From contig JAUNSK010000013.1 in NCBI GenBank assembly GCA_030539275.1, positions 55,865 to 104,845 on the forward strand: DNA of 48,981 nt, given 5' to 3'. The stretch's first letter is position 1; each line of letters begins with the position of its first letter. Source of the DNA: Oscillospiraceae bacterium. GTDB taxonomy: Bacteria; Bacillota; Clostridia; Oscillospirales; Ruminococcaceae. Below the pieces are notes generated by a model that ran no database searches, was not told the DNA's origin, and worked only from the letters and a program-made list of their open reading frames with translations. Below are positions 39,759 through 41,859 of this stretch, piece by piece. The position numbers were made by a program, and so were the translations under genes.

Positions 39759-40484
39759 TTAATGCAGTTTGACTCCCGGATCCTTGAATTCCGCAAGTCT
39801 GTTCTTATAAGCTGTATAAATTTCTTCGCTGAAGGCAAGCTCCGGGTTTTCGATTCCGAGAGTTTTCAGCAGATCTGCTGTAAAATACGGGTTAAGTACA
39901 AGCAGAGGACCTACAATGTTTGTTCCGAAGAAGTTATGAACATGAATTCCTTCAAGCTTTGATTCCTTGTTTATTCCGTCTCCTCTTTCGACAGCAGCAA
40001 AATAACAGTCCGAATTATCACCGAATGTCATTGTAAACTGAGTTCTGAAGCCAACTATATCAATGTCTTTGTATTTAGCCAGGATCATTGAATTGTAGCG
40101 GTTAAACATATATCTTTTTGCATAAAAATCAAATATGCCAAGACCCTCAATTCTTGAGCCGTCGTCATTTTCAATGTAGTTGAACAGTATCTCCATGGAG
40201 TTGCCTGTAAAAAGCATTACCTTATCGGATTCTATTGCATCCTTAAGCTGCTGCCTGTATGGCATGAGCTTTCCGATGATCTTTTCCTGGGTTCTCTCTG
40301 TAGTAGAAGCCATATAGATCATATCAGCACCGCCCTGTACAAAAGCAGGTTCATCATTGAATGCTGTATATATAAACTCGGCATCAGGAAGACATCTTTC
40401 AAGATAACGGATATTGCCGGTGTCTCCGAAAAGGTTGCATATTTCAGGGTATAGAATTTCAATTCTGAGTTTGTTTTCAGGCAT
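39759..40484 (-). CDS. gatD: GatD-like subunit (lipid II isoglutaminyl synthase family) lacking catalytic Cys/His
   Basis: 241 residues. The fold and landmarks match GatD: LRIEILYPEICNLFGDTGNI at the start, EGLGIFDFY (~113-121) and EGIHVHNFFGT before GPLL. GatD supplies ammonia from glutamine to MurT for amidating D-Glu of lipid II. Here the nucleophile position (CGGYQ in active GatD) reads TGNSM (Thr93), and the catalytic His of GTYLHGP reads GTNIVGP (Val191). Glutaminase activity is therefore not expected. The gene overlaps murT by 8 bases, so the two subunits are still made together. The symbol is given by homology and position only. Confidence 0.8.
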   Translation of the reverse strand: MPENKLRIEILYPEICNLFGDTGNIRYLERCLPDAEFIYTAFNDEPAFVQGGADMIYMASTTERTQEKIIGKLMPYRQQLKDAIESDKVMLFTGNSMEILFNYIENDDGSRIEGLGIFDFYAKRYMFNRYNSMILAKYKDIDIVGFRTQFTMTFGDNSDCYFAAVERGDGINKESKLEGIHVHNFFGTNIVGPLLVLNPYFTADLLKTLGIENPELAFSEEIYTAYKNRLAEFKDPGVKLH

Positions 40485-41859
40485 TTTCCATCATCTCCTT
40501 AAGCTTTGCTTCTATAACATCCTTTGCACGGAAATTATACATTTCGAAAAGAACGTATACACTTTCTGTCTGACTCAGATCTACAAGCTCAGCTGTATCC
40601 TCCTCGCGGTCACAGCAAACGATCTTTTCCTCAGGTATACCGCCTATAAGCATGCGGAGTTTATAGTCAACCGAGCGTTTTCCGCCTATAATGATCTTGT
40701 TTATGCTGTCATTATTTAAGAATTCAAAGTCTGTATCATAGATCCAGGCGATATTTTCACTCGTGGTCTTTGCATCATAGTAGTCATCAAGGATAACTAT
40801 AACAGTTTTTGTCTCATTGCTTTGTCTTGTAAGATTGCATGCGTGTGAGCAGGCAACAGGATTCTGCCCCTTTGCAAGATTAAATACAAGCTTTTTGCCG
40901 TTTATGGTTTCTGATGTAAATCTTGACTTGACTACGGCAGTTTTCATAAATGAATTTTTAACCTGTTCATAGCTCAGTCCGAAAGTCCTCAGCAGTGTTA
41001 TAGCAGCACAGGCGTTGTAAAGATTTATTGTATTTTCACATGCTACTGTATATTTCTCTTCACCGTCTGGCGTATTCATTGTAATATGAGCGTGTCCGTC
41101 ATCTGTAAATTCTCTGCTTACTATATCAAAATCAGGGGCAGGAGATTCAAGACCGCATTTTGTGCAGTGAGCACGTCCTATATGGTGATATCTGCGGAAA
41201 TCATATTCAACAGGTGAGTTGCATTCCGGACATGCTGCAACGTCATTTACTATATTGTCTGTTATCAGTACTTCATCATCAAAGCATTCCATACCGAAAT
41301 ATGTTCTTTTGTTGTTCTTCTTAAGTCTGCAGCTGATAAGATCATCACAGTCAAGGATAAGATGTGATGAGTCAGGTATGTTTTTATTGAGAATATCGAA
41401 AATGTATTCAACGTGAGCATTTCTTTTATAGGAGTCACGTGTAAGATTTGTGCATACAAGGTAATCCGGATGAATATAAGGATAGATCCTCAGTGCGCTT
41501 CGTTCATCAATTTCAAGAATGCAGTACTTTTTCTTAGCCTTTCCGCTTAAGGTTGAATCCTTAAGAAGAGCTGTAGTGATTCCTGTATCTACATTTCCGC
41601 CGAAGTTGTTATTCGTGCAGTCATATCCATTGTCTGTAAGTATGTCCAGAAGCATATTGCTGACGGTGGTTTTGCCGTTTGTTCCGGTAACTGCAATTAT
41701 TTTTTCAGGAAGTTCCAGATATTTAAGAAAATCAGGACATAATGTAAGTACAACAGAGCCCGGCAGATTAGTTGCATTTTTCTTTAACAGCCGGAGCAGT
41801 TTGATAGTGATTTTACCGCAGACGCATGCGAATAAAAATCTCAGCGTTTTTTTAGCCAA
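40477..41859 (-). CDS. murT: MurT-like Mur-ligase subunit (lipid II isoglutaminyl synthase)
   Basis: 460 residues from a TTG start (41859) with GGAGATGG upstream. Mur-ligase ATP loop VTGTNGKTTVSNML (~57-70), a zinc ribbon with Cys210/213 and 232/235 (CPEC ... CTKC), which is characteristic of MurT, and a C-terminal DUF1727 domain (VIVILDDYYDAKT, YDTDFEFL). MurT activates the alpha-carboxylate of D-Glu in lipid II, and GatD-derived ammonia then forms D-isoglutamine. All ligase features appear intact, in contrast to the partner. Acts at the cytoplasmic face during wall synthesis. Confidence 0.9.
   Translation of the reverse strand: MAKKTLRFLFACVCGKITIKLLRLLKKNATNLPGSVVLTLCPDFLKYLELPEKIIAVTGTNGKTTVSNMLLDILTDNGYDCTNNNFGGNVDTGITTALLKDSTLSGKAKKKYCILEIDERSALRIYPYIHPDYLVCTNLTRDSYKRNAHVEYIFDILNKNIPDSSHLILDCDDLISCRLKKNNKRTYFGMECFDDEVLITDNIVNDVAACPECNSPVEYDFRRYHHIGRAHCTKCGLESPAPDFDIVSREFTDDGHAHITMNTPDGEEKYTVACENTINLYNACAAITLLRTFGLSYEQVKNSFMKTAVVKSRFTSETINGKKLVFNLAKGQNPVACSHACNLTRQSNETKTVIVILDDYYDAKTTSENIAWIYDTDFEFLNNDSINKIIIGGKRSVDYKLRMLIGGIPEEKIVCCDREEDTAELVDLSQTESVYVLFEMYNFRAKDVIEAKLKEMMENA

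What the first reader, a model, noticed from the sequence alone, without database searches (positions are those of the whole stretch)
39759..41859. MurT/GatD pair with a GatD that has lost both catalytic residues
GatD homology is clear along the chain (NLFGDTGNI, EGLGIFDFY, GIHVHN, GPLL), yet the nucleophile Cys of the CGGYQ motif is Thr93 (TGNSM) and the catalytic His of GTYLHGP is Val191 (GTNIVGP). MurT keeps its ATP loop, zinc ribbon and DUF1727 domain. The complex would not hydrolyse glutamine. It might use free ammonia, take another nitrogen or amine donor, or modify D-Glu of lipid II differently. The conserved overlap of the two genes argues against simple decay.
Basis: partly seen in the sequence, partly recalled or inferred. 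Interest (0 to 1): 0.75.

Follow-up and report, generated by a model that had tools for sequence, protein, structure and literature searches.

The report
Cell-wall amidase lacking its amidase
A gene pair that normally puts ammonia from glutamine onto a cell-wall building block exists here, and in many related bacteria, in a long-conserved form whose ammonia-making half looks dead while its ligase half looks intact, so it probably joins something else, perhaps an amino acid, to the cell wall.

Summary
The third proposed triad residue, MurT Asp349, is Asn369. Changing Cys94 or Asp349 in S. aureus abolished or nearly abolished glutamine-dependent activity. The own assembly shows no second MurT or GatD.

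It is no private decay. Of 334 distinct GatDs read, 179 lack both residues and 146 have both. Seventy-five Cys-less representatives form one clade. Most ligase residues tested are kept in 73-75 of 75; Cys94, His189 and Gly60 are gone in all 75, though Arg128 (62) and Asp19 (50) mostly stay. Two MurT loops are lengthened. GatD dN/dS is 0.02-0.04 in four close pairs.

Most likely MurT still activates D-Glu and an amine other than glutamine-derived ammonia attacks. I favour an amino acid: a genome of the length of Eubacterium limosum ATCC 8486, recalled to have a D-Glu-linked (type B) wall, carries only this form. Free ammonia is the main rival: S. aureus MurT/GatD_C94G still amidates with NH3 at pH 8.5. 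The nucleophile is untested.

The parts
40477..41859 (-). MurT-like Mur ligase, 460 aa, TTG start as listed
   Evidence: AF2 pLDDT 92.2, best fold matches are S. aureus, S. pyogenes and S. pneumoniae MurT
39759..40484 (-). GatD-like glutaminase-fold subunit without catalytic Cys/His, 241 aa
40203..40205 (-). GatD Gly94 codon = S. aureus Cys94 position (Thr93 precedes, Asn95 follows)
39912..39914 (-). GatD Val191 codon = S. aureus His189 position
40753..40755 (-). MurT Asn369 codon = S. aureus MurT Asp349 (proposed third triad residue)
   Evidence: D349N tested in S. aureus (PMC6113224 passages)
40864..40869 (-). MurT Gly331-Gln332, insertion between Lys330 and Asn333 of the ribose loop: 1-2 extra residues in 75 of 75 Cys-less and 0 in 36 of 36 canonical representatives
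41668..41685 (-). MurT ATP loop GTNGKT (residues 59-64), kept
41155..41232 (-). MurT zinc ribbon Cys210, 213, 232, 235, kept
40546..40866 (-). MurT_C (PF08353) domain, residues 332-438
39915..40466 (-). GATase_3 (PF07685) domain, residues 7-190

Best explanation
The pair belongs to an old, separately evolving branch of MurT/GatD. GatD is kept as a structural partner that no longer makes ammonia. MurT still uses ATP to activate the alpha-carboxyl of D-isoglutamate in the peptidoglycan precursor. The attacking amine is not made from glutamine. I think it is most likely a free amino acid that reaches the acyl phosphate through the remodelled MurT/GatD face, giving a D-Glu(alpha)-amino acid branch as in type B walls. 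Shown by sequence: loss of the glutaminase site, retention of ligase residues, one large clade, purifying selection. Inferred: lipid II or its precursor as acceptor, an amino acid as nucleophile, GatD as scaffold or amino-acid holder.
For: In 75 Cys-less clade rows against 36 canonical rows (Cys is part of the sorting, and Cys and His define 'canonical', so those two columns are by construction for the canonical rows and Cys for the others): His189 0 vs 36, Gly60 0 vs 36, Glu147 1 vs 36, His149 2 vs 36. Ligase residues kept: Lys63 75/75, Asn89 74/75, Asp118 75/75, Glu119 74/75, Asp142 74/75, Arg146 71/75, zinc Cys 73-75/75. MurT loops changed in step: 1-2 extra ribose-loop residues in 75/75 vs 0/36; Asp349 loop 12-18 vs 11-12 residues. 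One clade of 75 rows, SH-aLRT 99. GatD dN/dS 0.021-0.044 in the four within-genus pairs with dS under 1. In the class sample at least 60 of 212 MurT-bearing genomes carry such a GatD, and one of the 60 (G720) was seen with a canonical copy too. G753, one contig of 4,422,837 bp, the printed length of E. limosum ATCC 8486 (PMC5651825 passages), has one MurT_C hit, with this GatD. G551 (4,044,777 bp; A. woodii printed 4,044,785) is alike. There the pair is followed by genes I read as mnmA and glmM, and glmS in G551. A review table lists type B2alpha for Eubacterium beside A types; group B means cross-linkage from residue 2.
Against: No activity or wall analysis is known to me for the window's organism or its sub-clade. 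The E. limosum/A. woodii sub-clade has a long stem, so its wall type does not transfer to the window; that these two species have type B walls is my recall, as the review row gives Eubacterium A and B types. The same table lists Faecalibacterium only as mesoDAP. Arg128, which holds glutamine in S. aureus, is kept in 62 of 75, Asp19, proposed as third triad residue in the S. pneumoniae paper, is Asp in 50 and Glu in 21, and MurT Asp349 stays Asp in 20 of 75, so parts of the old site persist. G753 and G551 also have FemAB-family hits over the cut-off, another possible source of a branch residue, though four related genomes (G800, G818, G617, G791) have none. Canonical and Cys-less pairs co-occur in G113, G192 and G720. 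The window's near neighbours (34.6-47.2 kb) do not read as wall-precursor genes.
Confidence: 0.47

Rival explanations
1. Ammonia-dependent isoglutaminyl synthase: the pair still makes D-iGln but uses free ammonia, with GatD as an obligatory scaffold.
For: S. aureus MurT/GatD_C94G, the same Cys-to-Gly change as here, loses glutamine activity but amidates lipid II with NH3 at pH 8.5, and neither subunit works alone (PMC3266927 passages). Needs no new chemistry; many carriers are gut anaerobes (inference).
Against: The same mutant is inactive with NH3 or NH4Cl at pH 7.5. It does not by itself explain the matched MurT loop insertions, or the presence of only this form in the E. limosum-length genome if its wall is type B.
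Confidence: 0.32
2. The pair has moved to another acceptor outside peptidoglycan.
For: The MurT loop after Asp142 is changed from Asp-Arg-Phe/Tyr-x-Glu towards x-Arg-Asn-x-His; three genomes keep a canonical pair too (G113, G192, G720); some Erysipelotrichales carry two or three MurT_C hits.
Against: Residues matching those needed for activity in S. pneumoniae (Lys59, Asn85, Asp112/Glu113, Asp136, Arg140) are kept, and the changed ones match S. pneumoniae Asp139 and Glu143, whose mutants kept 71% and 102% activity; glmM/glmS neighbours in Eubacterium/Acetobacterium-like genomes.
Confidence: 0.13
3. Another glutaminase feeds ammonia to MurT in trans.
For: The own genome has ORFs that I read as PdxT and HisH glutaminases.
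Against: Those belong to other pathways; GatD itself is kept under strong selection.
Confidence: 0.04
4. Decay, assembly error or chance.
For: None found beyond the loss itself.
Against: 179 of 334 distinct GatDs lack both residues, clade of 75, dN/dS 0.021-0.044 in four pairs, present in 10 of 11 genus genomes.
Confidence: 0.02

Closest known systems
Lipid II isoglutaminyl synthase MurT/GatD (S. aureus 6gs2/6h5e, S. pneumoniae 6fqb, S. pyogenes 9sq9)
   Same: Gene pair, folds, ATP and Mg residues, zinc ribbon, MurT_C domain
   Different: Cys94, His189 and MurT Asp349 absent in the window pair, Gly60, Glu147 and His149 positions changed, two MurT loops lengthened; scores far under NCBIfam equivalog cut-offs (GatD 73 vs 400, MurT 191.9 vs 800 bits)
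S. aureus GatD_C94G laboratory mutant
   Same: Same Cys-to-Gly change; the ammonia route at pH 8.5 is kept
   Different: A single mutation, against a whole remodelled site in an old lineage
Archaeal MurT-like of pseudomurein archaea (PMC11915815 passages)
   Same: MurT-type ligase without a working glutaminase
   Different: No GatD is found in archaea that only bear MurT-like
Amino-acid-adding Mur ligases (MurC/D/E/F, pMurC)
   Same: Mur ligase fold and ATP loop; amino acid or dipeptide as nucleophile (known chemistry)
   Different: No GatD partner; only distant sequence matches (pMurC 69 vs 560 bits)

Membership tests
MurT/GatD isoglutaminyl synthase | MurT with Mur_ligase_M, zinc ribbon, MurT_C | tested here: met
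MurT/GatD isoglutaminyl synthase | GatD adjacent to MurT on the same strand | tested here: met
   8-nt overlap; 91 of 93 Cys-less and 36 of 37 canonical pairs
MurT/GatD isoglutaminyl synthase | GatD nucleophile Cys94 | tested here: not met
   Gly94
MurT/GatD isoglutaminyl synthase | GatD His189 | tested here: not met
   Val191
MurT/GatD isoglutaminyl synthase | MurT Asp349 | tested here: not met
   Asn369; Asp is kept in 20 of 75 Cys-less representatives
MurT/GatD isoglutaminyl synthase | GatD Arg128 (glutamine sequestration) | tested here: met
   aligned Arg kept in the window (Arg129) and in 62 of 75
MurT/GatD isoglutaminyl synthase | NCBIfam equivalog cut-offs | tested here: not met
   GatD 73/400 and 64.6/450; MurT 191.9/800 and 198.2/800 bits
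MurT/GatD isoglutaminyl synthase | Glutamine-dependent amidation of lipid II | not testable with these tools
   needs biochemistry
Class I glutamine amidotransferase (GATase_3) | Fold | tested here: met
Class I glutamine amidotransferase (GATase_3) | Nucleophile elbow with Cys and oxyanion Gly | tested here: not met
   FTGNS and ASTTER in place of TICGG and GGGSDR
Type B peptidoglycan branch ligase (hypothesis, no established family) | Is the only MurT/GatD in an organism with D-Glu-linked wall | tested here: inconclusive
   G753 (length of E. limosum ATCC 8486) and G551 (A. woodii length within 8 bp) carry only this form; wall type from a review row and recall
Type B peptidoglycan branch ligase (hypothesis, no established family) | Adds an amino acid to D-Glu | not testable with these tools
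   needs biochemistry

The most novel reading that the evidence does not exclude
This branch of MurT/GatD is the ATP-dependent ligase that fixes an amino acid on the D-Glu alpha-carboxyl of the wall precursor, the step that founds type B (2-4 linked) peptidoglycan, with a dead glutaminase turned into a substrate-holding subunit; sub-clades would attach different amino acids, and actinobacteria would have reached the same solution independently.
Probability: 0.33. Interest if true: 0.88.

Novelty: new variant of a known kind. Interest (0 to 1): 0.68.

Why it matters
Annotation by similarity would credit these bacteria with D-Glu amidation from glutamine, which this form should not be able to do. 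The D-Glu carboxyl bears on how the wall is cross-linked (background knowledge). If the amino-acid reading holds, it gives a gene for the founding step of type B peptidoglycan and makes that question testable in tractable acetogens such as E. limosum and A. woodii. I saw no paper on Cys-less GatD or on a type B branch ligase among the listings of searches (an open-licence library; searches list only the top 25 of 206, 15 of 1,601 and 12 of 47 papers), nor in the passages read.

Tried and rejected
Rejected: single-genome accident; a hidden second intact pair. A Cys shifted by one residue as a general rescue: of 93 Cys-less GatDs, L033, L056 and L135 have a Cys one residue before and L046 one after, none with the His. 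Fem-type branching in the own genome: one PF02388 hit at 22 bits, under the cut-off; 5 of 18 genomes searched had a match, G753 and G551 among them. Neighbourhood as a general clue: among 26 sequences compared, MurT and GatD were clustered in 25, and no other family recurred in more than 5; only the Eubacterium/Acetobacterium-like loci gave wall-precursor neighbours.

Led nowhere: the one genome-contig scan returned 80 loci, of which 16 (L138-L153) had a MurT-type hit over 250 bits and the rest low scores like those of other Mur ligases. A phage search with an actinobacterial locus found nothing. Paper searches: 63 (A. woodii length) and 67 gave none, 103 one off-topic paper, 92 one on-topic paper (PMC5945732) among 12 listed. 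The unnamed actinobacterial genomes with Cys-less GatD could not be named; their best named relative in the plasmid set is a Leifsonia plasmid at 33%, which itself has a canonical GatD, so a Microbacteriaceae / type B link there is a guess.

Limits: catalytic status was read only in fetched loci. In the class sample I fetched mainly low-scoring MurT_C hits, so 60 of 212 is a lower bound. One of 55 family hits (G174) and eight order hits (G271, G293, G321, G360, G362, G366, G415, G463) were not fetched. L008 has a MurT with no GatD found. The tree uses 114 representatives of the 292 rows with over 280 core residues (of 336); the other 44 rows were left out. Trees are 'quick' IQ-TREE runs with midpoint roots; L309, L311 and L371 and L308 fall outside the big clade. 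dN/dS of other pairs is 0.080-0.137 with dS 1.5-2.7, or cannot be computed because dS is saturated, as in most pairs with the window. Odds were lowered a little on re-reading (best 0.50 to 0.47, novel case 0.35 to 0.33, ammonia 0.30 to 0.32) because the kept Arg128/Asp19 and the FemAB hits of G753 and G551 had been left out.

Full report
What is there. On the minus strand the window holds murT (40477-41859, 460 aa, TTG start as listed) and gatD (39759-40484, 241 aa), overlapping by 8 nt. Pfam recognises GATase_3 (32.4 bits), Mur_ligase_M (42.5) and MurT_C (87.4). NCBIfam's MurT and GatD equivalogs match far under their cut-offs. At E <= 0.001 the PDB sequences found for the GatD are those of S. 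aureus, S. pneumoniae and S. pyogenes MurT/GatD complexes, and the MurT's best are their MurTs. AlphaFold2 models are confident (GatD pLDDT 96.2; MurT 92.2) and their best fold matches are the same complexes.

The active site. In S. aureus the proposed triad is GatD Cys94, GatD His189 and MurT Asp349. C94S abolished and D349N abolished or severely reduced lipid II amidation (passages of PMC6113224). C94A, H189A and R128A lost glutaminase activity (passages of PMC5871853). Here the triad positions are Gly94, Val191 and Asn369. The oxyanion strand GGGSDR reads ASTTER. Two features stay: Arg128 (Arg129 here) and the Asp (Asp20 here) that the S. pneumoniae paper proposes as third triad residue (passages of PMC6085368).

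Own genome. One MurT_C hit, in the window. Three PF07685 hits: the window's, and two short ones whose ORFs I read as PdxT and HisH. No intact GatD was found elsewhere in this 96%-complete assembly.

How widespread. In the window's family 52 of 197 genomes have MurT_C, with 55 hits. I fetched 54: 42 GatDs lack Cys and His, 11 have both, and one MurT had no GatD found. The family holds the genus of Ruminococcus albus, as far as a MurT of G158 (same family) that is 95% identical to that on an R. albus 7 plasmid shows. Of 130 GatDs read, 37 had Cys, His and the MurT Asp, 93 had neither Cys nor His, and none was partial; Cys94 was Gly in 92 of the 93. In the order 81 of 297, and in the class 212 of 392 genomes have MurT_C. 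In the class sample 60 of the 212 were seen to carry a GatD with neither residue; these were sought among low-scoring MurT_C hits, so it is a lower bound. The order of an Erysipelotrichaceae MAG gave 116 of 195: the 30 top-scoring loci were canonical, and all 23 low-scoring GatDs fetched lacked both residues; some genomes have two or three MurT_C hits. Over everything read there are 334 distinct GatDs: 179 with neither residue, 146 with both, 6 without Cys but with His, 2 with Cys and no aligned His, 1 without Cys and no aligned His (which corrects the 180).

One old branch, plus later repeats. A MurT tree of 114 representatives (57% identity clustering) puts 75 Cys-less rows on one side of a branch (SH-aLRT 99), with three strays (L309, L311, L371) elsewhere. 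A second tree with eight Cys-less actinobacterial rows places them in their own clade (99), away from the first. The simplest reading is that GatD lost its nucleophile several times, and once early in the Bacillota sampled.

Selection. The 75 rows were sorted by lack of Cys and the 36 canonical rows by having Cys and His, so those columns are by construction. The others are not: His189 0 vs 36, Gly60 0 vs 36, Glu147 1 vs 36, His149 2 vs 36, MurT Asp349 20 vs 36. Kept in part: Arg128 62 vs 36, Asp19 50 (Glu 21) vs 36, Gly59 62 vs 35. Ligase residues: Lys63 75/75 and 36/36, Asn89 74/75 and 35/36, Asp118 75/75 and 36/36, Glu119 74/75 and 36/36, Asp142 74/75 and 35/36, Arg146 71/75 and 35/36, Thr64 64/75 and 35/36, Arg141 65/75 and 35/36, zinc cysteines 73-75/75. 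By my alignment Lys63, Asn89, Asp118/Glu119, Asp142 and Arg146 match S. pneumoniae Lys59, Asn85, Asp112/Glu113, Asp136 and Arg140, whose mutants had 1-13% activity. New common residues in GatD are Gly94 (71/75), Asn95 (57/75), Glu63 (64/75) and an acid at 98 (57/75). MurT has 1-2 extra residues in the ribose loop in 75/75 against 0/36 and a longer Asp349 loop (12-18 against 11-12). The four within-genus GatD pairs with dS under 1 have dN/dS 0.021-0.044, like MurT's 0.041-0.047. A GatD without its catalytic residues under such constraint is most likely a working part.

What it may do. Ligase chemistry looks intact; ammonia supply from glutamine does not. Two readings lead. (a) Free ammonia: S. 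aureus MurT/GatD_C94G still amidates lipid II with NH3 at pH 8.5, not at 7.5, and neither subunit works alone (passages of PMC3266927). (b) Another amine, most simply an amino acid, as in amino-acid-adding Mur ligases. For (b): G753, whose single contig of 4,422,837 bp equals the printed length of E. limosum ATCC 8486 (PMC5651825 passages), and G551, 4,044,777 bp against 4,044,785 printed for A. woodii (PMC3315566 passages), each have one MurT_C hit and a Cys-less, His-less GatD. By recall both have type B walls, in which an amino acid sits on the D-Glu alpha-carboxyl; a review table lists B2alpha beside A types for Eubacterium (PMC11382707, section 4 part 1), and group B is defined by cross-linkage from residue 2 (PMC6721243 passages). 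In these genomes the pair is followed by genes I read as mnmA and glmM, and glmS in G551. The type B idea is on record in a note written after the class list had appeared but before any of its GatDs was read, so it is a prediction partly met, not proof. Against (b): the window's sub-clade differs from theirs, no wall of its organism is known to me, Faecalibacterium is listed only as mesoDAP in the same table, and G753 and G551 also have FemAB-family hits that could make a branch, although four of their relatives have none.

Verdict. The finding is real and stronger than stated. I saw nothing on it in the listings of searches. It is a new variant of a known kind. The mechanism stays open between an amino acid and ammonia.

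Noticed in passing
Looks like an independent loss.
   Followed up: partly
L375:1550-4213 and L371:1917-4358: One open frame hits both MurT and GatD models, with Arg at the Cys position: apparent MurT-GatD fusions.
   Followed up: no
L148:6853-8238 (Gastranaerophilales), L382:2835-4163, L383:4349-5725: MurT-like genes with no GatD found beside them.
   Followed up: partly
L384/L385 (G844), L427/L428 (G1248), L429/L430 (G1316), L431/L432 (G1314), L425/L426 (G1332), L433/L434 (G1335): Genomes of the Erysipelotrichaceae MAG's order with two or three Cys-less MurT/GatD pairs of differing sub-types.
   Followed up: partly
L436:4013-5994: A Leifsonia shinshuensis plasmid carries a canonical MurT/GatD pair followed by an M15 peptidase annotated as VanY-like.
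   Followed up: no
L316, L317: In the E. limosum- and A. woodii-length genomes the pair is followed by an MnmA-type gene and a glmM-like gene, with a glmS-like gene after it in L317.
   Followed up: partly
L424: The GatD match lies upstream of the MurT instead of downstream.
   Followed up: no
L070 (G197): The MurT frame ends 146 nt before the GatD frame opens, unlike its genus mates; possible frameshift or assembly error.
   Followed up: no
38872-39597 (+): A 241-aa ORF with long acidic runs lies between a cardiolipin synthase-like gene and gatD; not examined.
   Followed up: no
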